From: Cyrtodaria siliqua
Lineage: Eukaryota; Mollusca; Bivalvia; Adapedonta; Hiatellidae
Length of the DNA stretch: 64,000 bases
NCBI GenBank assembly: GCA_037043455.1
Contig: JAWPHD010000227.1
Location: 62,001 to 126,000, forward strand
Direction of reading: 5' to 3'
Shown one piece after another: positions 7,504 through 63,316 of this stretch. Position 1 is the stretch's first letter. Every line of letters begins with the position of its first letter. Below the pieces are notes generated by a model that saw only the letters and a list, made by a program, of their open reading frames with translations, was not told the origin of the DNA and ran no database searches. A program made the position numbers and the translations under genes.

Positions 7504-7556
7504 ATACCACCAAATCAAATAGTACTACTAATGTTCCCGACTACTTCTATACTTAC

Positions 7557-10700: not shown

Positions 10701-11085
10701 TAATGAAGGCCCTAGAATGTTCACAAGGCAAAAGTCGACGGACGAACAACGGACGGACAATGGACGACGGACAATTCGTGATCCAATAAGGGGCCCAAGA
10801 GGGCATAAATGGTCTGATCTGGCTGTGTTTCGAACTTTTCCGAGCTTTCATTGATATTAACAATCTGTGCAAGTTTGGTAAAGATCAATAATAAATAAAG
10901 GTGCTAGAGTGTTCACAGGGCAGAAAATGGCATTTTTCAGAAAAAACTAGGACCATAACTCGGAAGTTACTGATCCAATTTGGCTGGTTTTCGAAGTTGC
11001 TTGAGCTTTCATTGATATTTACAATCAGAGGAAGTTTGGTAAAGATCAAATAATAAATGAAGGTGCTATTGTGAAGGTACATTTA
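7731..11085 (+). repeat. Family C tandem array with head-to-tail joins
   Basis: Units of about 162 bp carry AAGGGCCATAACTC, GAACTTGTCCGAGCTTTCAT, TTAACAATCTGTGCAAGTTT and GTTCACAAGGCAGAA. Right ends (hairpin, AGAGCTA) are fused directly to new left ends (ACAAGAGGCC) at 7957/7958 and 8487/8488. A further start (GGGCCCAAGAGGGCATAAAT) lies near 10793. The longest run, about 8488-10790, holds some 14 units. It is interrupted on the right by the non-LTR element at 11086-15160 and resumes afterwards. Confidence 0.9.
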
Positions 11086-21480: not shown

Positions 21481-22344
21481 ATTAAAAAAAAAAAAAAAAA
21501 GTCATAAAATCTGGTAAAGTTTGGCAAAGATCAGATGCAAAATGAAGGCCCTATCGTATGACGAGGCAAATTATAGCATTTCTAACTAAATCAAGGGCCA
21601 TAACTCCGCTGTTACTGGTCCGACCTGGCTGGTTTTCGAACTTGTTCGAGCTTTCGTTGATATTAACCATCTGATAAAGATTGGTAAAGATCGGATGAAA
21701 AATGAAGCCCCTATCGTCTTAACGAGGTAAAATATAGCATTTTTAACTAAATCAAGGGCCATAACTCCGCTGTACTTGTCCGATATGGCTGATTTTCGAA
21801 CTTGTTCGAGCTTTCAATGACATTAACAATCTGATAAAGTTTGGTAAAGATCGGATGAACAATGAAGCCCCTATCGTCTTAACGAGGCAAAATATAGCAT
21901 TTATAACTAAATCAAGGGCCATAACTCCGCTGTTACTGGTCCGATATAAATGGTTTTCGAACTTTTTCGAGCTTTCAACGACATTAACAATCTGATAAAG
22001 TTTGGTAAAAATCGGATGAACAATGAAGCCCCTATCGTCTTAACGAGGCAAAATATAGCATTTTTAACTAAATCAAGGGCCATAACTCCCCTGTTACTAT
22101 TCTGATATGGCTGGTTTTCAAACTTGTCCGAGCTTTCATTGGTATTAACAATCTGATAAAGTTTGGTAAAGATCGGATGAACAATGAAGCTCCTATCGTC
22201 TTAACGAGGCAAAATATAGCATTTTTAACTAAATCAAGGGCCATAACTCCGCTGTTACTCGTCTGATATGGCCGGTTTTCGAACTTGTCCGAGCTTCATT
22301 GATATTCACAATGTGGTAAAGCTTGGTAAAGATAGGATAAACAA
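21481..22344 (+). repeat. Family B array
   Basis: Five to six roughly 160-bp units, each with AAATCAAGGGCCATAACTCC, TTGTCCGAGCTTTCATTGAT-type text and CCCCTATCGTCTTAACGAGG. The array runs into a full family B left end at 22345. Confidence 0.9.
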
Positions 22345-24645
22345 GAGGCCCAAGAGGGCCTGTGGACGCTCTACTGGCTTATATGGCTCTTATAACATCA
22401 ATGAAGCGAGTGACTATCACCTTAAAGAGGCAAAATATAGCATTTTTTACTAAATCAATAGCTATAACTCCGCCATTACTGGTCCGATCTGGCTGGTTTT
22501 CGAACTTGGCCAGTAGAGACAATAAAAATAAAAAAAAATAAAAAATAAACATTAAAAAAAAATAAAAATAAAAAAAATTCAAAAAAAATTATGAAAAAAA
22601 AAATAAAAAAAAAATAAAAAAAAATTAAATTAAAAAAGTAAATAAATAATAATATAAAAAAAAGTCATAAAATCTGGTAAAGTTTGGCAAAGATCAGATG
22701 CAAAATGAAGGCCCTATCGTATGACGTGGCAAATTATAGCATTTTTTAACAAAATCAAGGGCCATAACTTCGCTGTTACTGGTCCGATCTCGCTAGTTTT
22801 CAAACCTGACCGAGCTTTCAACGACATTAACAATCTGATAAAGCTTGGTAAAGATTGGATGAAAAATGAAGGCCCTACCGTCTTAACAAGACAAAATATT
22901 TTGAACTAAATCAAGGGCCATAACTCCGCTGATATTGGTCCGATATGAATGGTTTTCGAACATGTCCAAGCTTTTATTGATATAAACAATCTGATAAAGT
23001 TTGGTAAGGATCGGAACAATGAAGCCTCTATCGCCTTAACGAGGCAAAATATAGCATTTTTAACTAAATAAAGGGCCGTAACTCCGCTGTTACTAGTCCG
23101 ATATGGCTGGTTTTCGAACTTGACCGAGCTTTCATTGATATTAACAATCTGATAGTGTTTGGTAAAGATCGGATGAACAATGAAGCCCCTATCGTCTTAA
23201 CGACGCAAAATATAACATTTTTACCAAATCAAGTGCCATAACTCCGCTGTTACTGGTCCGATAAGGCTGGTTTTCAAACTTGTTCGGGCTTTCAATGACA
23301 TTAACAATCTGATAAAGTTTGGTAAAGATCGGATGAACAATAAAGCCCCTATCGTATTAACGAGGCAAAATATAGCATTTTTAACTAAATCAAGGGCCAT
23401 AACTCCGCTGTTACTAGTCCGATATGGCTGGTTTTCGAACTTGTCCGAGCTTTCATTGATATTAACAATGTGGTAAAGCTTGGTAAAGATAGGATGGAAA
23501 ACGAAAGCCCTATCGTCTTAACGAGGCAAATAATAGCAATATAGCGTTTTTAACTAAATCAAGGACCATAACTCCGCTCTTACTGGTCCGATTTGGCTGG
23601 TTTTCGAACTTGTCCGAGCTTTCATTGATATTAACAATGTGGTAAAGTTTGGTAAAGATAGGATGACAAATGAAGGCCCTATCGTCTTAACGAGGCAAAA
23701 TATAGCAATATAGCAATATAGCATTTTTAACTAAATCAAGAGCCATAACTCCGTTGTTACTTATCCGATCTGGCTGGTTTTCGAACTCATCCGAGCTTTC
23801 ATTGATATTAACAACCTGTTAAAGTTTGGTAAAGATCGGATGAAAAATGAAGGCCCTATCGTCTTAACGAGACAAAAGTTAACGATGGACGGACAACGGA
23901 CGGACGACGGACAACTCGGCATCCCATAAGCTAAGGCCAGTAGAGCTAAAAACGAAGGTCCTATCATCTTAATGACGCATAATATAGCAATATAGCATTT
24001 TTAACTAAATCAAGGACCATAACTCTGGTGTTACTGGTCCGATCTGGCTGGTTTTCGGACTTGTCCGAGCTTTCATTGATATTAACAATGTCGTAAAGTT
24101 TGGTAAAGATAGGATGAAAAATGAAGGCCCTATCGTCTTAACGAGGCAAAATATAGCAATATAGCATTTTTAACTAAATCAAGGGCCATAACTCTGCTGT
24201 TACTTGGCCGATCTGGCTGGTTTTCGAACTCATCCGAGCTTTCGTTGATATTAACAAGCTGTTAAAGTTTGGTAAAGATTGGATGAAAAATGAAGGCCCT
24301 ATCGTCTTAACGAGACAAAAGTTAACAACGGACGACGGACAACTCGGCATCCCATAAGCTCTGCTAGCCTTCGGCCAGTAGAGCTAAAAATGAACGCCCT
24401 TTTGTCTTAACGAGGCAAAATATAGCATTTTTAACTAAATCAAGGGCCATAACTCCGCTGTTACTGGTTCGATTTAGCTGGTTTGCGAACTTGTGCGAGC
24501 TTTCATTGACATTAACAATCTGGTAAAGTTTGGTTAAGATCAGATGAAAAATGAAGGCCCTATCATCTTAACGAGACAAAAGTTAACGACGGACGGACGA
24601 CGGACGACAGACAACTCGGCATCCCATAAGCTCTACTAGCTAAAA
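22345..24645 (+). mobile_element. Family B elements, nested copies
   Basis: The left end ACAAGAGGCCCAAGAGGGCC (hairpin GGCCC/GGGCC) is followed by GGACGCTCTACTGGC. An A-rich stretch (22505-22660) precedes the roughly 160-bp array. Three right ends occur: about 23927-23950 (GGCCAGTAGAGCTAAAAA), 24358-24389 (hairpin CTGCTAGCCTTCGGCCAGTAG) and 24629-24646 (TCTACTAGCTAAAAA). Each has a GGACGGACAACGGACGG-type tract before it. This suggests serial copies that each kept part of the array. Confidence 0.85.
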
Positions 24646-27242: not shown

Positions 27243-29434
27243 TTACAACAATCCATTACATTGGTCAATGTTTATTCAACTTAGAAATGAGGTAATTGCT
27301 TTAATCCGCGAATCTAAGGAATCATACAAGTCAAAACTTACATCCAAATTAACTGATAAATCAATCCCCACGGGTAAATGATGGCGTATAGCAAAATCGA
27401 TCTCTAAATTGAACAAAATAACTCAACCAAACTTTCCAATAAAAAATAACGGTCGTATTTTAATACATCCAGTAGACAAAGCAAACGCATTGAATTCTTC
27501 CTTTTCTGCAACATCTCATATTGAACATGAGCCGGAATTACCTACTTTTCATAATCCCACTGACTATAAAATGAATGACTTTATTATAAATGAAACGGAA
27601 GTAATTGATCAATTGAAAATCTTGAAATTATCGAAACCTCCAGGCCCAGATATGATTAGCCCAAAGGTGTTAAAATTAGTTTTAAATAGCATCGCTGCTC
27701 CATTGACGCGACTTTTTAATCTGTCATTGTCCACTAGAAAAGTACCATACCAATGGAAACAGGCGAATGTAACTCCTATTTTTAAGGGCAAGGGAAAACC
27801 TGACATGCCGGGCAATTATAGGCCTATATCCATTACCAGTATTATTTGCAAATTGATGGAAAAAATCGTATTTAAACACTTGTTCAACTATATCAAAACG
27901 AATAACCTTCTGTGCAAATGCCAGGCAGGCTTTCAACCTAGAGACTCTACAGTAAATCAGCTCATAGAAATATATAATAACATAATAAGCAACCTCGACG
28001 CTGGGAAAGATGTACGATTTATATTTTGCGTTTGACAAAGTATGGCATGCTGAGTTGCTTTTTAAATTAGCTAAATACGGTATCAATGATTCATTATGTA
28101 ACTGGATACGTAGTATCTCTCTGATAGGCAGCAAAAAGTAGTCCTAGATGGATTTTCTTCACGCTTCAGTACTATAGATGCAGGTGTTCCGCAAGGCTAT
28201 GTTTTAGGTCCGTTTCTATTTCTGCTTTATATAAATGACATCTCAGATGACTTATTGAATGATGTACGGTTATTTGCTGATGACACTTCTCTTTTTGTTG
28301 TAGTTGATAAAAACCCAGTAGAATGTGCCAACTCTCTTACAAATGATCTTTGCAAAATATCTGAATGGTCAAAAAAATGGGCTGTTACATTTAATCCTAA
28401 AAAAACACAAAAGCCTTGTTTGCACTAGAAGAAACTATAACCACCCACCAGTCTACTTTGATAATGATGTAGTACAAGACGTAGCGTCACATTGCCACCT
28501 TGGATTAACAATTCAGTCCAATGCAACTTGGTCGCAAAAAAAAATAGAAAATATATACGAAAAAGCATGTGCACGATTTAACATTCTAAGAATGCTTAAG
28601 TACAAACTTGACAGACATTCTCTATTGAAAATATATATCGCCTTTATAAGACTTATACTTGAATATGGAGATTCAGTATGGGATAACTGTACACAGGGAG
28701 AATCTGATCTATTAGAGAGCGTCCAAGTTGAAGCAGCACGAATAATAACAGGCCTCAGATGCAATTCCTCTAGATCATACTTATATACTGAATTGAACTT
28801 AGAAACAATAACAAAAAGAAGAAAAGATCATAAACTTGTAACTATTTACAAAATAATTTATGGCATAAGTCCAGAATACATGTATAACTTAATCCAGCCA
28901 TACTTACCTGTAAACAATAATTATAACCTTCGAACTTCAGGATTAAACTTACGTCTCCCTCTTTGTCGTACAACATCATATTATAACAGCTTTCTGCCGA
29001 GTACAATTAGATTGTGGAATGCTTTACATTTAGACGCTAAAAATGCACCATCTGTTGAACAGTTTAAGCATAAACTTAAGGCTATTGAACATAGGACTGA
29101 CAGTCCATATCACTATAATATAGGAATTAGGAATGATAACATCATCCATTGTCAATTAAGAAATAACTCAAGTAATCTAAATACGCATTTATTTGACCAC
29201 TTCTTGACAGATTCAGCAGTATGTCCGAAATGTGGCAATCCATGTGAGGACAATTCTCATTTCTTTTTCAACTGTCCACTGTATAACCAATTCAGAAATG
29301 ACTTACTTGATACCCTAGCCAATCGTGTTGATGTCACGCATATCAACATTGACTTGATACTAAACGATACGACGAACTCAGAAATTGTACTTATCGTCCA
29401 CAAATACATCAAGTGTACCAGGGGATTTTCGTAG
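27243..29434 (+). pseudogene. Jockey/CR1-like LINE pol, broken
   Basis: A 5'-truncated non-LTR pol read in at least four pieces. A first degenerate piece (27243-27408, one stop) shows LRNEVIALIRESKESYKSKL. The second (27409-28035) holds the RT fingers: SKPPGPDMISPKVLK, WKQANVTPIFKGKG and NYRPISITSIICKLMEKIV. A frameshift near 28025 leads to FDKVWHAELLFKLAKYGIND, then GVPQGYVLGPFLFLLYINDI (motif B) and LFADDTSLF (motif C, F-A-D-D), with another shift near 28130. A shift near 28405 opens the last frame (to 29434), which includes HLGLTIQSNATWSQKKI, an ARFNILRMLKYKLDR thumb and a final CPKCGNPCEDNSHFFFNC knuckle. The endonuclease and ORF1 are absent. It is nested in the long-TIR element. Confidence 0.9.
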
Positions 29435-33740: not shown

Positions 33741-34995
33741 ACAAGAGGTCAATGACCTTGAATCTCTACTGATTGATTTTGATTTCAGGAAGTTGTCACT
33801 ACAAACTTGTTTTTTGAAAATCTATTTTTAGCCGTGGCGGCCATCTTGAATTTCCGGCCAACCTGAAATTTTGCTAGGATCAATTAGACATCAAGAGCAA
33901 CATTCCTGTGAAGTTTCATGAAAATCTTTGAAGTAGTTTAAGAGTAGTAGTCGCTACAAGTTTTCATTATATAACTCTTATGTAAACAAAGATGGCCACT
34001 GGCAGCCATGTTTAACGTCGAATAAAAATAATGTTTGACTCGAATAACCGTCATGTCATGCTGATCATTTTAGAAAAAGTCCCATATCAATATCACTTAC
34101 AGTTTTCAAGAAGTAGTTGCTACGAACTTATTTTTTTTAATCTATTTTTAACTGTGGTGGCCATCTTGAATTCTGGTCGATCTGAAATTTTGCTAGGAAC
34201 AATAAGACATCAAGAGCAACATTCCTGTGAAGTTTCATGAAAATCCGTAAAGTAGTTTCAGAGGAGTAGTCGCTACAAGTTTTCATTATATAACTCTATG
34301 TAAACAAAGATGGCCGCTGGCAGCCATGTTTAACGTCGAATCAAAACGATTTTCGACAAGGACCAACATCATGTCATGCTGATCATTTTAGAAAAAGTCC
34401 CATATCAATATCTCTTATAGTTTTCAAGAAGTAGTCGCTACAAACTTATTTTTTAAAAATCTATTTTTAGCCGTGGTGGCCATCTTGAATTTCCGGCCGA
34501 CCTGAAACTTTGCTAGGATCAATAAGACATCAAGAGAAACATTCCTGTGAAGTTTCATGAAAATCCGTCGAGTAGTTTCAGAGGAGTAGTCGCTACAAGT
34601 TTTCATTATATAACTCTATGTAAACAAAGATGGCCACTGGCAGCCATGTTTAACGTCGAATCAAAACGATTTTCGACAAGGACCAACATCATGTCATGCT
34701 GATCATTTTAGTAAAAGTCCTATATCAATATCCCTTAGAGTTTTCAAGAAGTAGTCGCTACAAACTTGTTTTTTAAAAACATATTTTTAGATTTGGCGGC
34801 CATCTTGGATTTCACATCAACATGAATTTTTGCTAGGATCAACTAGACTTCATGGGCAACATTTCCGTAAAGTTTCATGAAGATCCATCCAGTAGTTTCA
34901 GAGGAGTAGTCGCTACAAATAAAAGTTTACGGACGGACAGACGGATGACGGACGCCGCACCACGGCATAAGCTCTGCTGATCTCTGATCTAAAAA
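33741..34995 (+). mobile_element. Family A element between family D copies
   Basis: Left end ACAAGAGGTCAATGACCTTG at 33741, just under four 320-bp units, GGACGGACAGACGGATGACGG tract, and a right end with a shortened hairpin (GCTCTGCTGATCTCTGATC, then TAAAAA). It lies between two family D arrays in the same orientation. Confidence 0.88.
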
Positions 34996-39083: not shown

Positions 39084-40645
39084 ACAAGAGGTCAATGATT
39101 TTGATTTCAGGAAGTAGTCGCTACAGACTTGTTTTTTGAAAATCTATTTTTAACCGTGGCGGCCATCTTGAATTTCCGTCCGACCTGAAATTTTGCTAAG
39201 ATCAATAAGACATTAAGAGCAACATTCCTGTGAAGTTTCATGAAAATCCGTCAGGTAGTTTCAAAGAAGTAGTCGCTACAAGTTTTCATTATATAACTCT
39301 ATGTAAACAAAGCAGCCATGTTTAAGGTCAAATCAAAACGATTTTCGACAAGGACCAACATCATGTCATACTGATCATTTTAGAAAAAGTCCCATATCAA
39401 TATCTCTTATTGTTTTGAAGAAGTAGTCGCTACAAACTTATTTATTTTAATTTTTTTTTAGCTGTGGCGGCCATCTTGAATTTCCGGCCGACCTGAAATT
39501 TTTCTAGGATCAACTAGACATCAAGAGCAACATTCCTGTGAAGTTTCATGAACATCCGTCAAGTAGTTTCAGAGGAGTAGTCGCTACAAGTTTTTACTAT
39601 ATAACTCTATGTAACCAAAGATGGCCACTGGCAGCCATGTTTAACGTCGAATCAAAATAATTTTCCACAAGGATCTACATCATGTCATGCTGATCATTTT
39701 AGAAAAAGTCCCATATCAATATCACTTATAGTTTTCAAGAAGTAGTCGCTACAAACTTATTTTTTAAAAATCTATTTTTAGCTGTGACGGCCATCTTGAA
39801 TTTCCGGCTGACCTGAAATTTTGATAGGATCAATTAGACATCAAGAGCAACATTCCTGTAAAGTTTTATGACAATCCGCCAAGTAGTTTCAGAGGAGTAG
39901 TCGCTACAAGTTTTTACTATATAACTCTATGTAAACAAAGATGGCCGCTGGCAGCCATGTTTAACGTTGAATCAAAACGATTTTTGACTAGGATCAACAT
40001 CATGTAATGCTGATCATTTTAGAAAAAGTCCCATATCAATATCACTTATAGTTTTCAAGAAGTAGTCGTTACAAACTTATTTTTTAAAAATCTATTTTTA
40101 GCTGTGACGGCCATCTTGAATTTCCGGCCGACCTGAAATTTTTCTAGGATCAATTAGACATCAAGAGCAACATTCCTGTAAAGTTTCATGACAATCCGCC
40201 AAGTAGTTTCAGAGAAGAAGTCGCTACAAGTTTTTACTATATAACTCTATGTAAACAAAGATGGCCGCTGGCAGCCATGTTTAACGTTGAATCAAAACGA
40301 TTTTTGACTAGGATCAACATCATGTCATGCTGATCATTTTAGAAAAAGTCCCATATCAATATCACTTATAGTTTTCAAGAAGAAGTCGCTACAAACTTGT
40401 ATTTTAAAACTCTATTTTTAGCTTTGGCGGCCATCTTGGATTTCACATCAACATGAATTTTTGCTAGGATCAACTAGACTTTATGGGCAACATTTCTGTA
40501 AAGTTTCATGAATATCCATCCAGTAGTTTCAGCTGTGAAGTCGCTACAAATAAAAGTTTACGGACAGACGGACAGACGGCCAGACGGACGCCGGACGCCG
40601 CACCACGGCATAAGCTCTGCTGATCTCTGATCAGTAGAGCTAAAA
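39084..40645 (+). mobile_element. Family A element, left end shortened
   Basis: It starts ACAAGAGGTCAATGATTTTG at 39084. Compared with 33741, the stretch holding TGACC and AGCTCTACTGAT is deleted between two TGA repeats. About 4.5 dimer units, the GGACAGACGGACAGACGG tract and the standard hairpin and TAAAAA follow. The final AAAAACAAGAGG is shared with a family B left end. The interior closely matches 19899-21480. Confidence 0.88.
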
Positions 40646-43027
40646 ACAAGAGGCCCAAGAGGGCCTGTGGACGCTCTACTTGCTAACATGGCTCTTGAAG
40701 TTTCGGGCAAAAAACAGCTTTTGAACTAAATCAAGGGCCAGAACTAATTGAATGTTGTTTAACGGCTCATCAACACAGTATAGGTTATTTAGAGCCGCCC
40801 CAGAGAGAGGGGAAGGATACATAGGAATCCGGGAACCTGCCCTACTCTTATTATCGAATAGATTCCTATGGTTCTTTAACGTGCTCGAGGATAGACCGAT
40901 ACACGGGACCGCCCGGTTTACGTCCCCATCCGACGGACGAGGCTAAGGTAAAGTGTCTTGCCCAAGAGCACACCGACGGAACTCAGTGGCACCACGGAGG
41001 ATTGAACCCGGGGCCTCCGGTTACAAATCCGCCGCGCTAACCGACTGCGCCACGCCAGCCCCGGGCCAGAACTAAAGAATCTGTTAAAGTTTGGTAAAGA
41101 TCAGATGAAAAATGAAGGCCCTACCGTATTAACGAGGCAAAATATAGCATTTTTAACTAAATCAAGAGCCATAACTCCTCTGTTACTGGTCCGACTGGTC
41201 CAACATAGAGCTAAAAAAAAAAAAAAAAAAAAATTAAAAGCAAAAATTAAAATATATATATATAAAAAAAATAAAAAAAAATAAAAAAAAAATAAAAAAT
41301 AAAAAATAAAAAAAAAATAAAAAAAATTCAATTGAAAAAAAGAAATTTAAAAAAAAAAGAATTCAATTAAAAAAATAAAATAAAAAAAAAATAAAAAAAA
41401 AAATAAAAAAAAAATTAAAAAAAAGGAAAAGTTTGGTAACAATCAGAAGAAAAATAAAGGACCTCTCGTCTTAACGATGCAAAATATAGCGTTTTGAACT
41501 AAATCAATTTTCGAACTTGTCTGAGCTTTCATTGATATTAACAATCCGATAAAGTTTGGTAAAGATCAGATGAACAATGAAGCCCCTATCGTCTTAACGA
41601 GGCAAAACATAGCATTTTTAACTAAATCAAGGCCCATAACTCCACTGTTTCTTGTTTGAAATGGCTGGTTTTCAAACTTGTTCGAGCTTTCAATGACATA
41701 AACAAGCTGATAAAGTTTGGTAAAGATCGGATGAACATTGAAGCCCCTATCGCATTAACAAGGCAAAATATAGAATTTTTAACTAAATCAAGGGCCACAA
41801 CTATGCTGTTACTGGTCCGATATGGCTGGTTTTCGAACTTGTTCGAGCTTTCAACGACATTAACAATCTGATAAAGTTTGGTAAAGATCGGATGAACAAT
41901 GAAGCCCCTATCGCATTAACGAGGCAAAATATAGCATTTTTAACTAAATCAAGGGCCATAACTCCACTGTTACTATTCCGATATGGCTGGTTTTCGAACT
42001 TGTCTGAGCTTTCATTGATATTAACAATCTGATCTAGTTTGGTAAAGATCGGATGAACAATGAAGCCCCTAACGTCTTAACGAGGCAAAATATAGCATCT
42101 CTAACTAAATCAAGGGCAATAACTCCGCTGTTACTAGTCCGATATGGCTGGTTTTCGAACTTGTCTGAGCTTTCATTGATATTAACAATGTGGTAAAGTT
42201 TGGTAAAGATAGGATGAAAAACGAAGGCCCTATCATCTTAACAAGGCAACATATAGCAATATAGCATTTTTAACTAAATCAAGGACCATAACTCTGGTGT
42301 TACTGGTCCGATCTGGCTGGTTTTCGAACTTGTCCGAGCTTTCATTGTTATTAACAATGTGGTAAAGTTTGGTAAAGATAGGTTGAAAAATGAAGGCCCT
42401 ATCGTCTTAACGAGGCAAAATATAGCAATATAGCATTTTTAACTAAATCAAGGCCAAAGGCCAGCAGAGCTAAAAATGAAGGCCCTACCTTATTAACAAA
42501 GCAAAATATAGCATTTTTAACAAAATCAAGGGTCATAACTCCGCTGTTACTGGTTTGATCTGGCTGGTTTTCGAACATGTCCGAGCTTTAATTGATATTA
42601 ACAATCTGGTAAAGTTTGATAAAGATCGGATTAAAAATGAAGGCCCTATCTTCTTAACGGGGCAAAATATAGCATTTTTAACTAAATCAAGGGCCATAAC
42701 TAAAAAATCTGGTAAAGTCTGGTAAAGATCAGATGAAAAATGAAGGCCCTATCTTCTTAACGAGGCAAAATATAGCATTTGTAACGAAATCAAGGGCCAT
42801 AACTAAAGAATCTGGTAGTCTGGTAAAGATCAGATGAAAAATGAAGGCCCTATCTTCTTAACGAGGCAAAATATAGCATTTGTAACTAAATCAAGGGCCA
42901 TAACTAAAGAATCTGGTAAAGTCTGGTAAAGATCAGATGAAAAATGAAGGCCCTATCTTCTTAACGAGGCAAAATATAGCATTTGTAACTAAATCAAGGG
43001 CTATAACTCCGCTATTACTGGTCCGAT
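40646..43027 (+). mobile_element. Family B element with SINE insertion
   Basis: Left end ACAAGAGGCCCAAGAGGGCC and GGACGCTCTACT directly follow a family A right end. A SINE-3 is inserted at 40747-41062. An A-rich region (41213-41425) precedes about ten roughly 160-bp units. The array ends abruptly at about 43027, where it switches to the middle of a family A unit without any terminus. Confidence 0.86.
40747..41062 (-). mobile_element. SINE-3, full length, tRNA-derived
   Basis: Flanked by a 12-bp duplication GGGCCAGAACTA (40735-40746, 41063-41074). The minus strand begins GGGGCTGGCGTGGCGCAGTC. Box A is TGGCGCAGTCGG (41052-41041) and box B GGTTCAATCC (41008-40999). The head resembles a tRNA with a TTTGTAA anticodon loop (TGT, Thr-like). 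The body has CTTGGGCAAGACACTTTACC-like text (here TCTTGGGCAAGACACTTTAC), and the tail ends ACAACATTCAAT. Both Pol III boxes are intact, so it could be a recently active copy. Confidence 0.92.
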
Positions 43028-44393
43028 CAGCATTCCTGTGAAGTTTCATGAAAATCTGTCAAGTAGTTTCAGAGTAGTCGTTGCAAGTTTTTTATGTATA
43101 ACTCTATGTAAACAAAGATGGCCACTGGCAACCATGTTTAATGTCAAATCAAAATAATTTCTTAACAAGGACCAACATCATGTCATGCTTATCATTTTAG
43201 AAAAGTCCCATATCAATCTCACTTACAGTTTTCAAGAAGTAGTCGTTACAAATTTGTTTTTTAAAAATCTATTTTCAGCCGTGGCGGCCATCGAATTTCT
43301 GGCCGACCTGAAAATTTGCTAGGACCAACTAGACATCAACAGCAACATTCCTGTGAAGTTTCATGACAATCCGTCCAGTAGTTTAAGAGGAGTAGTCGCT
43401 AAAAGTATAAACTATATAACTCTATGTAAACAAAGATGGCCACTGAAAGTCATGTTTAATTTTGAATCAAAATGATTTTCGACAAGGACCAACATCATTC
43501 ATGCTGATCATTTTAGAAAAATTCCCTTATCAATATTACTTATAGTTTTCAAAAAGTAATCGCTACAAACTTGTTTTTTACAAATCTATTTTCAGCCGTG
43601 GTGGCCATCTTGAATTTCCTGTCGACCGGAAACATTCCAGTGAAATTTCTTGAAAATCCGTCAACGTAGTTTCAGAGGAGTAGTCGTTATAAGTTTTTAC
43701 TATATAACTCTATGTAAACAAAGATGGCCGCTGGCAGCCATGTTTAATGTCGAATCAAAACGATTTTCGACAAGGACTAACATCATGTCATGCTAATCAT
43801 TTTAGAAAAAGTCCATCAATATCACTTATAGTTTTCAAGAAGTAGTCGCTACAAGCTGTTTTTTAAAAATCTATTTTTAGCTGTGGCAGCCATCTTGAAA
43901 CTCCGGCCAACCTTATATTTTGCTAGGATCAATTAGACATCAAGAGCAACATTCCTGTGAAGTTTCATGAAAGTACTTTCAGAGGAGTAGTCGCTACAAG
44001 TTTTTACTATATAAACTCTATGTAAATAAAGATGGCCGCTGGCAGCCATGTTTGAAGTTGAATCATACAATTTTCGACTAGGACCAACATCATGTCATGC
44101 TGATCATTTTAGTAAAAGCCCAATATCAATATCACTTATAGTTTTTAAGAAGTAGTCGCTACGAACTTTCTTTTTTTTTAAATCTAGTTTAGCTTTGGTG
44201 CCCATCTTGGATACCACATCAACATGAATTTTTGCTAGTATCAACTAGACTTCATGGGCAACATTTCTGTAAAGTTTCATGAAAATCCACCCAGTAGTTT
44301 CAGAGGAGTAGTCGCTACAAAAAAAGTTTACGGACGGACGACAGACGCCGCACCACGGCATAAACTTTGCTGATCTTTGATCAGTAGAGATAA
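43028..44393 (+). repeat. Family A array, no left end
   Basis: Begins mid-unit (CAGCATTCCTGTGAAGTTTC) fused to family B. About four diverged 320-bp units, a GGACGGACGACAGACG tract, and the right-end hairpin with ATCAGTAGAGATAACAAGAG, where the last A is shared with the next family B left end. Confidence 0.86.
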
Positions 44394-46238
44394 CAAGAGG
44401 CCCAAGAGGGCCTGTGGACGCTCTACTGGCTAACATGGCTCTTATAACATCAATGAAGCGAGTGACTGCCATTTACGTTTTTTTGAAAGTTTCAGGCAAA
44501 AAACAGCTTTTTGACTAAATCAAGGGCCATAACTAAAGAATCTGGTAAATTTTGTAAAGATTAGATGAAAAATGAAGGCCATACCGTATTAACGAGGCAA
44601 AATATAGCATTTATTTCTGGTCCAACATAGAGATAAAAAAAAAAAAAAAAAAAAAATCTGAAAAAAAATGGAATAATTTCAACAAAAAAAAATATATGAA
44701 AAACATAATTATAATTAAAACAAATAAAAAAAAAAAAAAATAAAAAAAATAATAATAAAAAAAAAAAAAAAAAAAATAAATAAAAAAATAAATAAATAAT
44801 GATTAAAATAAAAATGAATAATAATATAAAAAAGACAGCTGTAAAATCTGGTAAAGTTTGGCAAAGATCAGATGCAAAATGAAGGCCTTATCGTAGGACG
44901 AGGCATATTATAGCATTTTTAACAAAATCAAGGGCCATAACTCCGCTGTTACTTGTCCGATCTGGTTGGTTTTCGAACTTGACCAAGCTTTCATAGACAT
45001 TAACAATTTCATGAAGTTTGGTAAAGATCGGATGAAAAATGAAGGCGCTATCGTCTTAACGAGGCAAAATATATCATTTTGAAGTAAATCAAGGGCCATA
45101 ACTCCGATGTTACTGGTCCGATATGGCTGGTTTTCGAACTTGTCTGAGCTTTCATTGATATTAACAATCTGATAAAGTTTGGTAAAGATCGGATGAACAA
45201 TGAAGCCCCTATAGTCTTAACGAGGCAAAATATAGCATTTTTAACTAAATCAAGGGCCATAACTCTGCTGTTACTACTTCGATATGGCTGGTTTTCGAAC
45301 TTGTCCAAGCTTTCTTTGATATTAACAATCTGTTCAAGTTTGGTAAAGATTGGATGAACAATGAAGCCCCTATTGTCTTAACGAGGCAAAATATAGCATT
45401 TTTAACTAAATCAAGGGCCATAACTTCCCCGTTACTGGTCCGATATGGCTGGTTTTCAAACTTGTTCGAGCTTTCAACGACATTAACAATCTGATAAATA
45501 TTGGTAAAGATCGGATGAACAATGAAGCCCCTATCGTCTTAACAATGCAAAATATAGCATTTTTAACTAAATCAAGGGCTACAACTCCGCTGATACTAGT
45601 CCGATATGGCTGGTTTTCGAACTTGTCCGAGCTTTCATTGATATTAACAACGTGGTAAAGTTTGGTAAAGATAGGAAGAAAAATGAAGGCCCTATCGTCT
45701 TAACGAGGCAAAATTTAGCAATATAGCATTTTTAACTAAATCAAGGGCAATAACTCCGCTGTTACTTGTCCGATCTGGCTGGTTTTCGAACTCATCCGAG
45801 CTTTTTATTGATATTAACAACCTGTTAAAGTTTGGTAAAGATCGGATGAAAAATGAAGGCCCTATCGTCTTAACGAGACAAAAGTTAACAACGGACGACG
45901 GACGGACGGACGGACGACGGACAACTCGGCATCCCATAAGCTCTGCTGGCCTTTGGCCAGTAGAGCTAAAAATGAAGGTCCTATCGTCTTAACGAGGCAA
46001 AATATAGCATTTTTAACTAAATCAAGGGTCATAACTCTGCTGTTAGTGGTCAGATATGGCTGGTTTTCAAACTTATCCGAGGTTTTATTGATATTAACAA
46101 TCTGGTAAAGTTTAGTAAAGATCTGATTAAAAATGAAGGCGCTATTGTCCTAAGGAGACAAAAGTTAACAATGGACAGACTACGGACGGACAACTCGCCA
46201 TCCCATAAACTCTGCTGGCCCTTGGCCAGTAGAGTTAA
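44394..46238 (+). mobile_element. Family B element with two right ends
   Basis: Left end ACAAGAGGCCCAAGAGGGCC at about 44393 and GGACGCTCTACTGGC. An A-rich region (44634-44832), then about eight roughly 160-bp units. Right ends occur at about 45938-45970 (hairpin CTGGCCTTTGGCCAG, AGAGCTAAAAA) and 46208-46240 (hairpin CTGGCCCTTGGCCAG, AGAGTTAAAAA). A short extra array between them looks like a second, partial copy. Confidence 0.87.
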
Positions 46239-47076
46239 AAATTAATAACAGTCTGATTTTTATTCAGTGAAATATGTACTAGGAACATGAGTGTAGACTC
46301 GAATAACTATGTAGTAATAAATTGGTTAATTTGAAACAAAAAGATTTATGTTGTTTAAACGTATTTGATTAATTATATGTACAACTATGCATATATACAA
46401 TGAAAACAAATAAAGGATCAGAAGGATAATGCTTATTAAGTTCCTTTCCTTACAATGTTTACATTTAAATTGAAATGGTAGACATTTTGTACATTTCTGG
46501 ATTAACTACTGATACCCTATTATTTATTGTTTGTAAACATCGCTGGGACCACACAATATTTACATTTCTGTTGTTCGAGTGATATAATAATTTATGAAAG
46601 TGTCTCTTTAATAATTTAAAGTTCGACAAGTTGAACCTGTTCGAGCCGGCAGTTTCTTTTTCTTATAATTATAAGCAGGAAGACTTATAGTCGAAATATA
46701 ACTGGGTAAATAAATCAAGGTACTGATTAAAAGCTTCACAACAACTTCAAGTTTTGCTGTGTGTCCCTTTAAGGAAGGTGATTAAACTGGAGATCGAATT
46801 GTTTAAAATTTCTAATGTTTCTTGACGATGGGTGGGGGACTATCAGCGATAAGGCAGCATGCATGAAAGATTCTGTTTTTGTAAAGAATAGTCTAGAGAA
46901 AGCAGGTTTTGTCCTAAAATGAATGAATGGTGTTTTACGGCAGGTCGACACATAAATAGGTCATATTGTGCGCAAAAATCGACGAGATGAAGAAATTAAG
47001 TAGTAATTAATGTAAATATATAAAGATAAAACTATTAAAAATAAGGGACGATATGGTAGTAATATAAACTACATAC
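46239..47076. other. Unassigned AT-rich sequence
   Basis: No gene, repeat unit or RNA recognised. TGTCCCTTTAA at 46762-46772 is the inverted partner of 37783-37793. Confidence 0.45.
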
Positions 47077-47590
47077 ATGTATGTAAATCAACAAATGCAT
47101 GTCAACAAATACTCAATTAAATATATACAAGAATTCATAAATTATAATATATCATTATGGGATCCTGCAAACAGTCTGACATGGGTTGGTCTTTGCTTGG
47201 AAAGTATTGAATTTAACCTTTCCATACCAGAGAAGACAGTTCAAGACCTGCTACTGACTCTTGATTTAATAATTAATATTCTACCGAATATTAGCGAAAC
47301 TTACTGGCAGAGTAATTTCATTGATGCCTGTTATTGACAATATCGCGAGATTCATGACAATGTCATTATACGTATATATCTCCTTGGGATCACTTATTTA
47401 AATTAAACAGTGACTGATCCCTATATTGAGGAATTGCTATTTTGGTAGAATAACGAAGACAATCTGAACATCCGAAAACTGGGTAATGTTTCTCGCTGCC
47501 CGACTATAGTTTATTCAGATGATAGCAACAGAGCATGCGGAGCGTCAATTCAATCTTCCACAAAGCATGGTCAGAAGTAAACGCCTAAAA
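47077..47590 (+). pseudogene. DIRS-like retroelement RT/RNase H fragment
   Basis: The segment up to 47337 contains LTWVGLCLESIEFNLSIPEK, resembling the end of the RT in DIRS-type (tyrosine-recombinase) retroelements, where 'T-W-L-G ... I-S-I-P' precedes the RNase H domain. After stops and frame changes, 47424-47570 gives EELLFW and DNLNIRKLG, then VYSDDSNRACGASIQ, which fits the RNase H start with its first catalytic aspartate ('Y-S-D-A-S-x-x-A/G-C-G-A'). The order and spacing match such elements. No recombinase is seen. It is a degraded fragment directly left of the hairpin satellite, and no link between the two is shown. Confidence 0.55.
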
Positions 47591-47734
47591 AATAGATTTT
47601 TTCTAATTCAGAGAAATTTAAGCAGCAAAAATAGTAATTAATATGTATAGTTCTTTGCTAAAGAACAAGTCGGTTAAATGGTTCACGTATTCTAAAAAAA
47701 AAAATGCGCCAAAATAATTACTATTTTGTCATTT

Positions 47735-50700
47735 TATGGATCCGGCGTCAGGCCGACGCAGACCATATTTATTTGGTATTGTATCGACCCAGTGTCGGGC
47801 GCCGGACAGTCAATTTACGGATACGGTGTCAGGCCGACGTAGAATGTATTTATTTTGTATTGTATCGATCCGGTGTCGGGCAGGCACAATCACTATATTG
47901 TTATTGTATGGATCTGGATTCAGGCCGACGCAGAATGTTTTTTTTTTGTATTGTATCGATCCGGTGTCTGGTGGACACCGTTAATATATTGTCGTTTTAT
48001 GGATCCGGCCGACGCAGAGCATATTTATTTTGTATTGTATCGAATTATTTGCGATCCGAGCTCGGGTAGAAACAGTGACTGACTATATTTTTTATTTTTT
48101 TGTCTTTTTATGGATCCGGCATCAGGCCGAAACAGAATGTATTTATTTTGTTTTGTATCATCCAGTGTCGGGCAGACACATTCACTATATTGTCATTTTA
48201 TGGATCGGTGTCAGAACGAAGCAGAGGAAATTTATTTTGTATTGTATCGAATTGTAGCGATCCGGTGTTGGGCGGACACATTCTCTATATTGTTGTTTTA
48301 TGGAAGAATGCAAAATGTATTTATTTGTCGTTTCATGGATCCGGCGTCAGGCCGTCGTAGAATGTATTTATGTTGTATTGTATCGATCCGGTGTCGGGCG
48401 GACACAGTCACTAAAATGTCATGTTATGGATCCGACGTCAGGCCTACGTAGAATGTATTTATTTTGTATTGTATCGATCCGGTGTCGGGCGGACACAAAC
48501 CATTTCTTCGATCCGGCGTCGGGCCGACCCATATATTTATGTTGTATTGTATCGATCCGGTGCCGGGCGGGCACAAACATTTTTTGGATCCGTCGTCGGG
48601 CCGACGCAGAAAGTATTTATGTTATAGTGTATCGATCCAGTGCCAGGCGGGCACAAACATTACGCAAAGTAATAATTTTGTTGTATCGCACTGTTCTGGT
48701 GTCGGGCAGACACAATCACTATATTGTCATTTTATGGATCTGACGTCAGGCCGACGTAGATTGTATTTATTTTGTATTGTATCGACCCGGTGTCGTGCGG
48801 ACACAGCCACTATATGCAGAAAGTATCTATGTTATATTGTATCGATCCGGTGTCAGGCAGGCAAACATTTTTCTGATCCGACGTCGGGCCGACACAAGTA
48901 ATAATTTTGTTGTATCGCACTGATCTGGCGTCAGGCAGACACAATCAATATATTGTCATTTTATGGATCCGACGTCAGGCCGATGTAGATTGTATTTATT
49001 TTGTACTGTATCGATCCGGCATCGGGCCGACGCAGAAAGTATATATGTTATATTGTATTGATCCGGTGCCAGGCAGGCAAACATTTTTCTGGTCCGACGT
49101 CGGGCCGACACAAGTAATAATTTTGTTGGATCGCACTGATCTGGCGTCGGGCAGACACAATCAATATATTGTCATTTTATGGATCCGGCGTCAGGCCGGC
49201 GCAGAATATACTTATTTTGTATTGTATCAATCCGGTGTCGGGCTGACACACTTACTATATTGTCATTTTATGGTTCCGACGTCTGGCCGACATAGAATGT
49301 ATTTATTTTGCATTGTTTCAATAAGGTGTCTGGCGGTCAGTCATTATTTTGTCATGTTATGGATCCGGCGTCAGGCCGACGTAGAATGTATTTATTTTGT
49401 ATCGTATCGATCAGGTGTCGGGTGGACACAAACCATATTTTGCTTCCGGCGACGGGCCGACGCAGAAAGTATTTATGTTATACTGTATCGATCCGGTGCC
49501 AGGCGGGCAGAAACATTTTTTGGATCCGGCGTCGGGCAAACGCAAAAAGTATTTGTTATATTGTATCGATCCGGTGCCAGGCGGGCACAAACATTTTTTT
49601 GATTCGACGTCGGGTTGACGCAAGTAATAATTTTGATGTATCACACTGATCTGGTGTCGGGCAGACACAATCACTATATTGTCATTTTATGGATCCGACA
49701 TCAGGCCGACGTAGATTGTATTTATTTTGTATTGTATTGATCCGGTGTCGTGCGGACACAGCCACTATATTGTGGTTTTATGGATCCGGCGTCAGGCCGA
49801 TGCAGAATGTACTTATTTTGTATTGTATCGATCCGTTGTCGGGCGGACACACTTACTATATTGTCATTTTATGGTGCCGACGTAGAATGTATTTATTTTG
49901 CATTGTTTCAATAAGGTGTTGGGCGGACACAAACCATATTTTGAATCCGGCGTCGGGTTGACGCAGAAAGTATCTATGTTATATTGTATCGATCCGGTGC
50001 CGGGCGGGCACAAACATTTGTTGGATCCGGCGTCGGGTCACCGCAGAAAGTATCTATGTTATATTGTATCGATCCGGTGCCGGGCGGGCACAAACATTTG
50101 TTGGATCCGGCGTCGGGTCACCGCAGAAAGTATCTATGTTATATTGTACCGATCCAGTGCCAGGCGGGCACAAACATTTTTTGGATCCGGCGTCGGGCCG
50201 ACGCAAGTAATAATTTTGTTGTATCGCACTGACCTGGTGTCGGGCGGACACAATCACTATATTGTCATTTTATGGATCCGACGTCAGGCCGACGTAGAAT
50301 GTATTTATTTTGTATTGTATCGATCCGGTGTCGTGCGGACACAGCCACTATATTGTCGTTTTATGGATCCAGCGTCAGGCCGACGCAGAATGGACTTATT
50401 TTGTATTGTATTGATCCGGTGTCGGGCCGACACACTTACTATAGTCATTTTATGGATCCAACGTCTGGGCGACGTGGAATGTATTTATTTTGCATTGTAT
50501 CAATAAGGTGTCGGGCTGTCAGTCATTTTTTTGTCATTTTATGGATCCAGTGTTAGGCCGACGTAGAATGTATTTATTTTGTATTGTATCGATCCGTTGT
50601 CGGGCGGACACAAACCATATTTTGAATCCGGCGTCGGGTCGACGCAGAAAGCATCTATGTTATATAGTATCGATCCGATGCCGGGCGGGCACAAACATTT

Positions 50701-50985
50701 TTGGGATCCGGCGTCGGCCAGACGCGGAATGTATTTAAGTTATATTGTATCGATCCGGTGCCGGGTGGGCACAAACATGTTTTGAATTTGGCGTCGGGCC
50801 GACGCAAGACACATTTTAAAGTTGTATCGCACTGATCTGGTTTGGTTGGACACATCAACTATTTATGTTATGTAATATGGACCCGGCGTTAGGCCATCAC
50901 ATTATGTATTTACGTTTTACTGAATCGATCCGGTGTCGGTCGGACACAAACCTTTTTGGATTCGGCTTTGGGCCGACGTAGAAAG
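47735..50985 (+). repeat. Micro-hairpin satellite, about 48/97-bp units
   Basis: About 65 related monomers of roughly 48 bp in 3.3 kb, mostly alternating in two types. Type 1: GGATCCG, hairpin GCGTC-AGGCC-GACGC (47745-47759), then AGAATGTATTTATTTTGTAT. Type 2: GATCCG, hairpin GTGTC-GGGCG-GACAC (48391-48405), then AATCACTATATTGTCATTTT. Other stems are ACGTC/GACGT (48743-48757) and GTGCC/GGCAC (48560-48574). Stem sides change together, keeping pairing. Later units lose some AT spacer (ACAAACATTTTTTGGATCC). Several overlapping plus-strand reading frames cross the array, but 97 is not a multiple of 3 and the same peptides appear in different frames, so I do not call them genes. Confidence 0.9.
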
Positions 50986-51329
50986 TATTTATGCTTTAAA
51001 TACCGTTTATTTGGTATAATTTGTCAGTTATTATAGTTTCAATATAAGAAAGGTTCTTGGGTCGTTATAGCGAATGCAAATCCCTTAGAATCGCGCTGAT
51101 TGTGTATTTTAGAGGGATTTATTAATTATGAGGTTAATCACATCTGAAATTGCCAAAATTGACCCGAAAATGACGGCGACTAAAATTTCGCCCCACATGA
51201 ATAAAAAAGCGAAGTCTGCCAAATCAGAGCGAAGTTTAAAGCGACTTCGCCTAATCGCGAGACCTCTGCTCGATTGCTTTCTCAGCCATCTGTTCCGTGC
51301 TTTAATCTCCTACTTCTGGTAAGCCGTTT
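50986..51329. other. Unassigned sequence right of the satellite
   Basis: Contains GCGAAGTTTAAAGCGACTTCGC (51229-51250), a short inverted repeat of a kind common in dispersed repeats. A plus-strand open stretch (51128-51322) has no family resemblance. Confidence 0.4.
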
Positions 51330-53117: not shown

Positions 53118-54395
53118 ACAAGAGGTCAATGACATTGAAGCTCTACTGATTGATTTTGATTTCAGGAAGTAGTCGCTACAACTTGTTTTTTTTAAATTTA
53201 TTTTTAGCCGTGGCGGCCATCTTGAATTTCCGGCCGACCTGAAATTTTGCTAGGATCAATTAGACATCAAGAGCAACATTCCTGTGAAGTTTCATGAAAT
53301 CCGTCAAGTAGTTTCAGAGGAGAAGTCGCTACAAGTTTTCACTATATAACTCTATGTTAACAAAGATGGCCGCTGACAGCCATGTTTAACATCGAATCAA
53401 AACGATTTTTGACAAGGACCAACATCATGTCATGCTGATCATTTTAGAAATCTTCCCATATCAATATCACTTATAGTTTTCAAGAAGAAGTCGCTACAAA
53501 CTTGTATTTTGAAAATCTATTTTTAGCCATGGCGGCCATCTTGAATTTCCGGCCGACCTGAAATTTTGCTAGGATCAATTAGACATCAAGAGCAACATTC
53601 CTGTGAAGTTTCATGAAAATCCGTCAAATAGTTTCAGAGGAGTAGTCACTACAAGTTTTCATTATATAACTCTATGTAAACAAAGATGGCCACTGGCAGC
53701 CATGTTTAACGTCGAATCAAAATAATGTTCGACTCGGATAACCATCATGTCATACTGATCATTTTAGAAAAAGTCCCATATCAATATCACTTATAGTTTT
53801 CAAGAAGAATTCGCTACAAACTTGTATTTTGAAAATTTATTTTTAGTCGTGGCGGTCATCTTGAATTTCCGGCCGACCTGAAATTTTGCTAGGATCAATT
53901 AGACATCAAGAGCAACATTCCTGTGAAGTTTCATGAAAATCCGTCGAGTAGTTTCAGAGGAGTAGTCGCTACAAGTTTTCATTATATAAATCTATTTAAA
54001 CAAAGATGGCCGCTGGCAGCCATGTTTAACGTCGAATCAAAACGATTTTTGACAAGGACCAACATCATGTCATGCTGATCATTTTAGAAAAAGTCCCATA
54101 TCTATATCACTTAGGAGTTTTCAAGAAGTAGTCGCTACAAACTTGTTTTTTAAAAATCTATGTTTAGATTTGGCGGCCATCTTGGATTTCACATCAACAT
54201 GAATTTTTGCTAGGATCAACTAGACTTCATGGGCAACATTTCTGTAAAGTTTCATGAAAATCCATTTAGTAGTTTCAGAGTAGTAGTCGCTACAAAAAAA
54301 AATTACGGACGGACAGACAGACAGGCGGACGGACGGACGACGGACACCGCACCACGGCATAAGCTCAGCTGATCTCTGATCAGTAGAGCTAAAAA
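53118..54395 (+). mobile_element. Family A element, complete
   Basis: Left end ACAAGAGGTCAATGACATTG with AGCTCTACTGAT, just under four 320-bp units, a GGACGGACAGACAGACAGGC tract, and right-end hairpin AGCTCAGCTGATC/GATCAGTAGAGCT then AAAAA. Non-repeat sequence lies on both sides, so this copy shows the true ends well. Confidence 0.9.
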
Positions 54396-62335: not shown

Positions 62336-63316
62336 TCAACTCAGTGAAGAAACTTTTATCCTGTCATCAGTGCCAGACAATGGTTCGTGAAGCTCATTGG
62401 TATCCACTGTCACCTTGATGAATATTGTGTCATCCTTCATAAAGCCGTTGGACGGGTTTGTCAGGCTTTCCAGTCTGATGAACAGTGGGCATCCACTTGC
62501 TATGTTCATGTCGGATGTAGGCCGTCGGAATGAAGAACTTGTCGGATCTGGTCGGAAAGAATCAAGCACATGTTCCCCACCATTCTGGTTGACCAGGCAA
62601 AACGAGACTCGCTGCTTGAATGGCCAGTTCTGTAAGGCATCATACTGACCCCTCATCACAACAAAGAACAGAGAAAGGTGTGAACCCTTCCCCATTCCAT
62701 CTCCATTGGGGTAGAGGCGTGCACACATCTTGAAACCTCGACGACTTGTGTAAAAGAATGGAGAGTAGATACTGATACTTCGACCATTGATAGCGTCTTG
62801 TTGTTTTTTGCTGAATTCTGTGACCTTCCAGATAAAGGTTCCATCATAGCTAGCTGACTCCAGGGACTGCACCCTCAACTCCAGCTCTGCAATAGCAATA
62901 TCTTTCAGTGCTAAGGTCCTCTCAAGTGTTCTCAATTTCTGTATGTTCTGCTCCACTGTTTCCTTTGTCTGTCTTCTTAACTGTTCAAACTTCTCCATAC
63001 CTCCTATTGTTTTATCTAACTCTCTGTGAAGAGCGGATGCAATTCCCTCAAATGTTCCCGTCTTCATTTCCAGTGCCTGACATCTGTCACTGACTGTGGT
63101 CTGGTGTAGCTCCACTGCTTGACGAATCTTCAGGTCGATGTTCTGGCCAAGAGGAAGACCATGATTGATCACGTCAACAAGCTGCCGTTCTATCGCAGCA
63201 GTTCTGTTTTCTGTTTCTTGTATCTGACCTTGTATTCTTGCTCCCAACTCATTGATGCTAGTACTTGTGTTGACAATGTTAGCAGTGGCTTCCCAGACAG
63301 TCAGTGAGTGTCCAGA
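62336..63316 (-). CDS. TRAF2/3/5-like adaptor, terminal exon
   Basis: The last exon of a TNF-receptor-associated factor, a cytoplasmic trimeric adaptor linking TNF-receptor or Toll-type receptors to NF-kB and kinase signalling. The exon gives 326 residues. Roughly residues 15-150 form a coiled coil with heptads (ERTLALKDIAIAELELRVQS). Residues 157-315 are a full TRAF-C/MATH domain: YDGTFIWKVTEF, YTSRRGFKMCARLYPNGDGM, HLSLFFVVMRGQYDALQNWP, PFKQRVSFCLVNQ, FRPDPTSSSFRRP, MNIASGCPLF and DDTIFIKVTVD. The stop is at 62336-62338. The acceptor is probably CCCCCTTCATGTCAG just above 63316, with a phase-0 start at SGHSLTVW. The RING and zinc-finger exons must lie beyond 64000. The mixture of TRAF2-like and TRAF3-like residues prevents a firmer name. 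No disruption is seen, so this is a live gene by appearance. Confidence 0.93.
   Translation of the reverse strand, partial: SGHSLTVWEATANIVNTSTSINELGARIQGQIQETENRTAAIERQLVDVINHGLPLGQNIDLKIRQAVELHQTTVSDRCQALEMKTGTFEGIASALHRELDKTIGGMEKFEQLRRQTKETVEQNIQKLRTLERTLALKDIAIAELELRVQSLESASYDGTFIWKVTEFSKKQQDAINGRSISIYSPFFYTSRRGFKMCARLYPNGDGMGKGSHLSLFFVVMRGQYDALQNWPFKQRVSFCLVNQNGGEHVLDSFRPDPTSSSFRRPTSDMNIASGCPLFIRLESLTNPSNGFMKDDTIFIKVTVDTNELHEPLSGTDDRIKVSSLS

What the first reader, a model, noticed from the sequence alone, without database searches (positions are those of the whole stretch)
47735..50985. Satellite of about 65 micro-hairpins whose stems covary between units
Each roughly 48-bp monomer carries a 5-5-5 hairpin. 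Seen stems include GCGTC/GACGC, ACGTC/GACGT, GTGTC/GACAC and GTGCC/GGCAC, so changes on one side are matched on the other. Loops are tied to stem type (AGGCC with G/ACGTC, GGGCG with GTGYC). The AT-rich spacers also alternate in two types, giving a 97-bp dimer. Ordinary satellites do not keep pairing through compensatory change, so selection on a dyad or hairpin, or copying by a hairpin-using mechanism, is plausible (inference). It may be a protein-binding dyad array, a structured RNA, or the core of a mobile element.
Basis: partly seen in the sequence, partly recalled or inferred. Interest (0 to 1): 0.8.

Follow-up and report, generated by a model that had tools for sequence, protein, structure and literature searches.

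The report
Retrotransposon carrying a hairpin repeat array
The repeat array is an internal part of a mobile DNA element (a tyrosine-recombinase retrotransposon of the DIRS/PAT kind) found in many places of this mollusc-like genome; the paired stems are real, but selection for pairing is not proven because a few founder variants could give the pattern.

Summary
The array is real: 47733-50987, 65 scorable units, 34 perfect 5-5-5 inverted repeats against 3.8 in shuffles. It is not a free satellite: all 20 other loci fetched share element sequence beside it. The element has precise ends, split direct repeats A1...B1A2...B2 whose B1A2 junction fuses the two ends, and no target-site duplication. A relative with long open frames (L041) reads Gag(CCHC)-RT/RH/Dam-like-[array]-tyrosine recombinase-B1A2-B2: a PAT-type (echinoderm-form Pat1-like) DIRS retrotransposon. 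In five coding-type copies the array lies between the RT frame and the recombinase. The window copy is a truncated member of a deletion-derived, presumably non-autonomous family that kept and enlarged the array. The four amplified stem types are all fully paired and differ by compensatory changes, more than a simple mutation model predicts (P 0.0001-0.006 over thresholds). A tree-aware test on the units finds no covariation above founder linkage; a spacer-tree test finds it for one stem pair (4-12) only. There is no clear G.U preference and no plus-strand preference. The mobile-element reading is supported; selection on a hairpin is possible but undemonstrated. Novelty: new variant of a known kind.

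The parts
46582..46632 (+). Remnant of the left terminal repeat A1 of the PAT-type element
   Evidence: 94% identical to repeat A of L014 over 51 bp; this is the left boundary seen in the other copies
46637..47646 (+). Internal region with eroded reverse transcriptase/RNase H coding sequence
   Evidence: 85.5% identical to L014; 46768-46912 and 47137-47698 match the Gag/RT stretch of L041 at 86% and 78%
47733..50987 (+). Hairpin array: 65 scorable units of TATNGATCCG + 5-bp stem + 5-nt loop + stem, alternating A and B types, 80/91-bp dimers
50988..51073 (+). Tail that follows the array in most other copies (recombinase-end region)
   Evidence: 50943-51073 is 95% identical to L014; 17 of 20 loci carry this region
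51074..51093 (+). Last recognisable element sequence, after a 22-bp gap relative to L014; B1-A2-B2 not found in the window
   Evidence: pairwise alignment with L014 and blastn of the whole window with the L014 and L041 3' parts

Best explanation
The array is an internal minisatellite of a PAT-type tyrosine-recombinase (DIRS-order) retrotransposon. It arose in the gap between the RT/RNase H/Dam-like frame and the recombinase frame from an A+B pair of dyads, grew by unequal exchange or copying slippage, and spreads because the whole element retrotransposes. The window holds a truncated copy of a deletion-derived family that lost the coding regions, kept and enlarged the array, and presumably moved with proteins of autonomous relatives. 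Full pairing of the main stem types reflects descent from a few fully paired founders; a pressure towards pairing is possible but not needed. Shown: the structure, the copies, the array's place in coding-type relatives. Inferred: circular intermediate, trans-mobilisation, origin and growth of the array.
For: Shared ends: along L014 the left end is covered by 16-17 and the right end by 14 of the 19 other loci, falling to 0-1 outside. Split direct repeats A (98.5%) and B (97.7%) in L014, 99.5% and 98.3% in L041. B1A2 junction equals right end plus left end in 13 of 21 loci examined, one with a substitution in the junction; target-site duplication 0-2 bp in the 11 loci with reliable outer ends. 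L041: CCHC Gag, RVT_1 E 7.5e-13, weaker Dam and recombinase matches, Cre-like PDB matches. Array between RT-frame end and recombinase in L041, L049, L050, L055 and L058; C5423 has it before the recombinase, RT end not fetched. The 12 best of 150 RT-remnant matches, found without the array, all carry it; 7 of them lie at places not listed. Repeated blocks of units within three arrays, seen by eye (L009, L015, L020). Spacers nearly as conserved as stems: 0.85-0.91 against 0.91-0.94.
Against: The four amplified stem types are all fully paired and no one-mismatch stem exceeds 42 units. Distinct stems seen in at least 2 loci have 167 paired cells against 139 (sd 5, maximum 154) when 3' arms are shuffled, a test that ignores relatedness. 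Founder-level restoring steps are over-represented; pair 4-12 co-changes on the spacer tree; the simulated comparison gives P 0.007 for the 21 compensatory changes, though that null is poorly matched. The 20 fetched loci were chosen by the array. Recombinase and Dam matches are below Pfam's cut-offs. Trans-mobilisation was not tested.
Confidence: 0.75

Rival explanations
1. The hairpins act in single-stranded RNA or cDNA of the element (packaging, RT recruitment, or expression of the downstream recombinase frame), and selection keeps the stems paired.
For: Four fully paired amplified stems and 4 of 6 restoring second steps; pair 4-12 co-changes on the spacer tree, 6 against 0.9; 11 of 13 partner-site second changes restore pairing; position just before the recombinase frame; the L041 array folds better than 20 shuffles on both strands, z -6.8 and -5.7.
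Against: Covariation on the unit tree not above null, and 16 restoring events against 27.8 (sd 9.1) in that null; WC-to-GU and WC-to-AC steps 51 to 41 and 73 to 62, although GU-to-WC exceeds AC-to-WC, 28 to 15; stem pairing probability in 135-nt context 0.27 on the plus and 0.35 on the minus strand, 400 sampled units; the unit next to the recombinase is paired in C5423 but has a C.A mismatch in its L058 counterpart (read from the sequence printed).
Confidence: 0.14
2. A double-stranded dyad array read by a protein: a host factor (as with the gypsy insulator, recalled) or the element's own Dam-like methyltransferase acting on the GATC that most units carry.
For: GATC intact in 1114 of 1246 units; 55 GATC in the window array, about 17 per kb against 4 per kb in the rest of the window; Dam-like match in the same element; GATCCG conserved at 0.95-0.97, first or second of the four classes compared.
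Against: A read dyad should keep base identity, yet three stem pairs swap identity between types; any 4-mer of a tandem unit is enriched; two edge units of C5423 keep the hairpin and lack GATC (sequence printed); the Dam match is below Pfam's cut-off.
Confidence: 0.09
3. Compensatory pairs are made by the copying itself: intrastrand template switching at the quasi-palindrome copies one arm onto the other, with no selection.
For: Intermediates with one mismatch exist beside both perfect parents; ten apparent one-step pair-to-pair switches on the spacer tree.
Against: Nine of those ten switches are between founder states of pairs 1, 2 and 4, so exchange between units explains them equally well; intermediates shared by up to 20 loci suggest two steps.
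Confidence: 0.08

Closest known systems
Pat1-like retrotransposons, echinoderm form (PAT group of the DIRS order; PMC4157794 and PMC3266345, passages read)
   Same: Split direct repeats A1-B1-A2-B2, CCHC Gag, RT-RNase H, Dam-like (MT) domain, tyrosine recombinase on the same strand, B1A2 after the recombinase; reported from the mollusc Lottia gigantea
   Different: A tandem hairpin array between the RT/RH/Dam-like frame and the recombinase; the word tandem has 0 occurrences in the main text of either paper
Cg_HINE non-autonomous Helentrons of Crassostrea gigas (PMC7492417, abstract and section list read)
   Same: Non-autonomous mobile elements that spread satellite-like central repeats through a bivalve genome
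   Different: Helentron DNA transposons; here a retrotransposon with split direct repeats and a coding relative that also carries the array
TOC1 of Chlamydomonas (recalled; two searches listed no paper on its repeats)
   Same: PAT-group element recalled as carrying internal short tandem repeats
   Different: Different host and repeat; hairpins not recalled; not tested here
Drosophila gypsy insulator (recalled)
   Same: Array of short protein-binding sites inside a retrotransposon
   Different: About a dozen sites, not dyads (recalled); no protein known for the present array

Membership tests
PAT (Pat1-like) DIRS retrotransposon | Split direct repeats A1-B1-A2-B2 | tested here: met
   L014 and L041: 97.7-99.5% identical A and B pairs; junction fuses the two ends in 13 of 21 loci. 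The window copy itself keeps only part of A1
PAT (Pat1-like) DIRS retrotransposon | Reverse transcriptase with RNase H | tested here: met
   RVT_1 E 7.5e-13, above cut-off; RVT_3 20.4 bits, just below its cut-off of 21.6; 593 homologues at E 0.001 or better, 120 listed
PAT (Pat1-like) DIRS retrotransposon | Dam-like methyltransferase domain after RNase H | tested here: inconclusive
   Dam E 0.0024, 18 bits against a cut-off of 28.1; some listed homologues carry PF05869
PAT (Pat1-like) DIRS retrotransposon | Tyrosine recombinase on the same strand | tested here: met
   Phage_int_SAM_4 E 9.5e-5 (23.2 bits, cut-off 27) and Phage_integrase E 0.053, both below cut-off; 17 Cre/Tre sequences, best E 1.5e-4; HSLRSGG motif (recalled as recombinase box II) in another copy, L047
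PAT (Pat1-like) DIRS retrotransposon | CCHC zinc knuckle in Gag | tested here: met
   zf-CCHC 21.1 bits, cut-off 20.8
PAT (Pat1-like) DIRS retrotransposon | No target-site duplication | tested here: met
   0-2 bp in 11 loci with reliable ends; 2 of the 13 rows dropped because they disagree
Helitron/Helentron satellite carrier | Helitron-type termini and Rep/helicase kinship | tested here: not met
   Ends AATAATTTATG and ACATAA, split direct repeats, RT-coding relative; no Rep/helicase match among the four L041 frames scanned
Structured RNA family | Covariation above a phylogeny-aware null | tested here: inconclusive
   Unit tree: E 13-20 for the three varying pairs, not met. Spacer tree: pair 4-12 only, 0 of 2000 permutations. 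Founder-level excess
Structured RNA family | Match to a described family | tested here: not met
   0 gathering-level matches in the window; four weak microRNA matches, E 0.25-0.92, in the L041 array

The most novel reading that the evidence does not exclude
The array is a working cis-element of a tyrosine-recombinase retrotransposon: a multiplied GATC-plus-hairpin module before the recombinase gene, recognised as single-stranded hairpin or as methylated dyad by the element's own proteins, with pairing kept while bases change. The non-autonomous family would have enlarged it to outcompete the parent for those proteins.
Probability: 0.12. Interest if true: 0.75.

Novelty: new variant of a known kind. 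Interest (0 to 1): 0.42.

Why it matters
It places a dispersed hairpin satellite inside a DIRS/PAT retrotransposon and shows the same array in coding-type relatives. That lets one ask whether satellites born inside retrotransposons serve the element or merely ride on it, and it warns that stem 'covariation' in homogenised arrays must be tested against founder spread.

Tried and rejected
Free satellite: rejected for the 20 loci fetched; each shares element sequence beside the array. Coding repeat: rejected; periods 80 and 91 are not multiples of three and open frames through the array differ between copies. tRNA or Rfam RNA: no tRNA and no gathering-level match in the window. LTR element: rejected; the direct repeats are split. 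Relatives in prokaryote genome contigs (4 loci, 28-35% identity), viral contigs (none confirmed; one isolated pattern match, not examined) and phages (none) gave nothing useful; plasmids were not searched.

Coding-type places: 13 looked at. Six carry the array (L041, L049, L050, L055, C5423, L058). In the stretches fetched for the other seven I found no array: L048, L052, L053, L054, L057 and L059 show no RT or recombinase match either, and L047 only the recombinase end, so I count them as uninformative rather than as lacking it. Pattern searches list array-type matches outside the fetched stretches for C1244 (L048) and C949 (L047).

Statistics: the simulated null gives far fewer breaks (21) than observed (243), so I lean only on its observed counts, although its P (0.007) favours pairing. 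The null has low power with three or four founder switches. In one search the rows of L023 and L027 disagree and were dropped. Of 1304 profile hits in 21 loci, 58 with gaps or cut cores were dropped before counting. A planned genome-wide census of eight stem combinations gave one count only (GTGTCGGGCGGACACA 657 places, control 0) because the search machine stayed busy; 142 exact B-to-A dimers were counted, control 0.

Full report
What is there. The window is G000:C227:62001-126000 of a 2.88-Gb genome in 26,948 contigs; no tool named the species. I take it for a mollusc, probably a bivalve, from the look of its other repeats (recalled, not tested). Named homologues of the related element's RT frame include Mytilus californianus and Mercenaria mercenaria, but also a brittle star, Amphiura filiformis. 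The array runs 47733-50987 with 65 scorable units. A unit is TAT(C/G)GATCCG followed by a 15-nt dyad; A and B types alternate, mostly at spacings of 47/44 or 47/33, so the dimers are 91 and 80 bp, not 97. Perfect 5-5-5 inverted repeats number 34 against 3.8 in shuffles.

It belongs to a mobile element. A 400-bp piece of the array gives 379 matches from 40 scored of 228 candidates. Twenty 10-kb loci (L009-L028), chosen by the array, were compared: along L014 the left end is shared by 16-17 and the right end by 14 of the 19 others, with 0-1 beyond. The left end reads AATAATTTATGAAAGTG and the right end GAGCGAATTAAAACATAA. Inside lie split direct repeats: in the reverse complement of L014, A1 1450-1648 and A2 7146-7344 (98.5%), B1 6974-7149 and B2 7809-7984 (97.7%). 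In 13 of 21 loci the B1A2 junction reads ACATAA+AATAATTTATG, right end fused to left end (one with a substitution), and in the 11 loci with reliable outer ends the target-site duplication is 0-2 bp. That is what a circle closed by a tyrosine recombinase would leave (inference; the DIRS model is described in passages of PMC3266345 read).

The coding relative. A 91-aa RT remnant of L014 gives 150 matches (150 scored of 260 candidates), one inside a 784-aa frame. That locus, L041, has A1 1729-1924, a Gag-like frame 1963-2811 with a CCHC knuckle, an RT/RNase H/Dam-like frame 2438-4792, the same array 5077-6020 (24 scored units), a recombinase frame 6117-7046, B1 7345-7522, A2 7521-7716 and B2 8247-8424. 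RVT_1 (E 7.5e-13) and zf-CCHC are above Pfam's cut-off, Dam and Phage_int_SAM_4 below it; the recombinase frame also matches Cre chains, E 1.5e-4. The order fits the echinoderm-form Pat1-like elements of PMC4157794 (passages read). The array lies between the RT-frame end and the recombinase in L049, L050 and L055 and in L058, whose recombinase match (C1978, 71% identical) begins at the end of the fetched stretch. C5423 has the array before its recombinase, the RT end lying outside the stretches fetched. Seven further coding-type stretches were uninformative. In the coding copies scored, the listed units are mostly GTGTC/GACAC and GCGTC/GACGC or one step from them; ACGTC/GACGT and GTGCC/GGCAC are not among the listed ones (at most 12 haplotypes listed per copy). 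Those two types are common in the deletion-derived family.

The window copy. It consists of an A1 remnant 46582-46632, eroded RT/RNase H sequence 46637-47646, the array, and a tail to about 51093; B1, A2 and B2 were not found in the window. It is a truncated member of the deletion-derived family. The 20 fetched loci and the window hold 33-88 scored units each, against 24, 21, 18 and 12 in L041, L049, L050 and L055. The 12 best of 150 RT-remnant matches all carry the array, so its presence is not only an effect of choosing loci by the array; common descent explains it.

Do the stems covary? In 1246 units from 21 loci, 840 are fully paired, and pairs 1-15, 2-14 and 4-12 switch base identity between types. 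Among distinct stems seen in at least 2 loci, paired cells exceed 3'-arm shuffles, 167 against 139 (sd 5, maximum 154 of 2000), a test that ignores relatedness. On a tree of 600 distinct 35-mers with substitutions re-dealt along branches, the stem pairs do not exceed the null (E 16.9, 20.0 and 12.8; the two other pairs E above 180), three non-stem pairs rank above them, and restoring events are 16 against 27.8. At founder level, 4 of 6 second steps from a one-mismatch stem restore pairing where 0.4-0.7 are expected: P 0.00027-0.0025 with stems in at least 3 or 4 loci, 4 of 5 and P 0.00009-0.0009 at 5 loci, 3 of 4 and P 0.001-0.006 at 6, 8 or 10 loci. On a spacer-only tree of 979 unit contexts, pair 4-12 co-changes on the same branch 6 times against 0.9 (0 of 2000 permutations), while pairs 1-15, 2-14, 3-13 and 5-11 give P 0.17, 0.19, 0.34 and 1.0; a non-pair, columns 10-14, is enriched as well, 3 against 0.4. 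The same tree counts 10 double switches and 11 partner-site restorations against 2 non-restoring partner changes, beside 43 same-site reversions; 19 of the 21 compensatory ones are at pairs 1, 2 and 4, as exchange between founder units would give. WC-to-GU and WC-to-AC steps are 51 to 41 and 73 to 62. Alone, 35-mers form at least four stem pairs in 673 (plus) and 766 (minus) of 1246 units; in 135-nt context the mean pairing probability is 0.27 (plus) and 0.35 (minus) for 400 sampled units. Spacers are nearly as conserved as stems.

Verdict. The best-supported account is a passenger minisatellite of a PAT-type retrotransposon, enlarged in a deletion-derived family and kept alike by exchange between units. 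Full pairing of all amplified founders, with the co-changes at pair 4-12, leaves room for a function of the hairpin at the single-strand level; a protein-read dyad fits less well because base identity is not kept. GATC in 1114 of 1246 units beside a Dam-like domain in the same element is a curious pairing, but two edge units of C5423 keep the hairpin without GATC. Literature searches on satellites in mobile elements and on DIRS/PAT elements (open-access papers only) listed no title or abstract start that describes such an array; the listed papers were not read through.

The structured-RNA covariation row was moved from 'not met' to 'inconclusive'.

Noticed in passing
window 4921-6345: 132-bp tandem repeat with long G-rich runs, strongly strand-skewed (GC skew 0.71 in 5001-6000), G-quadruplex-like by eye
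   Followed up: no
window, parts of 8515-10730, 17548-23877, 33783-34918, 39105-45883, 53160-54295: Several arrays of 161-163-bp and 320-bp tandem repeats
   Followed up: no
window 27409-28035 (+) and 11329-11907 (-): Reverse-transcriptase remnants of another kind: RVT_1 (E 1.5e-7) and zf-RVT (E 3.1e-5, below cut-off)
   Followed up: partly
window 62336-63247 (-): Open frame with TRAF/meprin MATH domain, E 9.3e-43
   Followed up: partly
L052 and L053, from base 1796 of the element strand to near the end: A different, 39-bp tandem repeat about 3.7 kb downstream of more distant relatives of the RT remnant; it may be a second array-bearing element
   Followed up: partly
L014 reverse complement 7245-7275, within repeat A: 31-bp near-perfect inverted repeat in repeat A, a candidate recombinase-binding dyad
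   Followed up: no
L041 4926-4950; L050 163-187, L055 192-216, L058 273-291 (element strand): Short TGTTTT repeat ahead of the hairpin array in four coding-type copies
   Followed up: no
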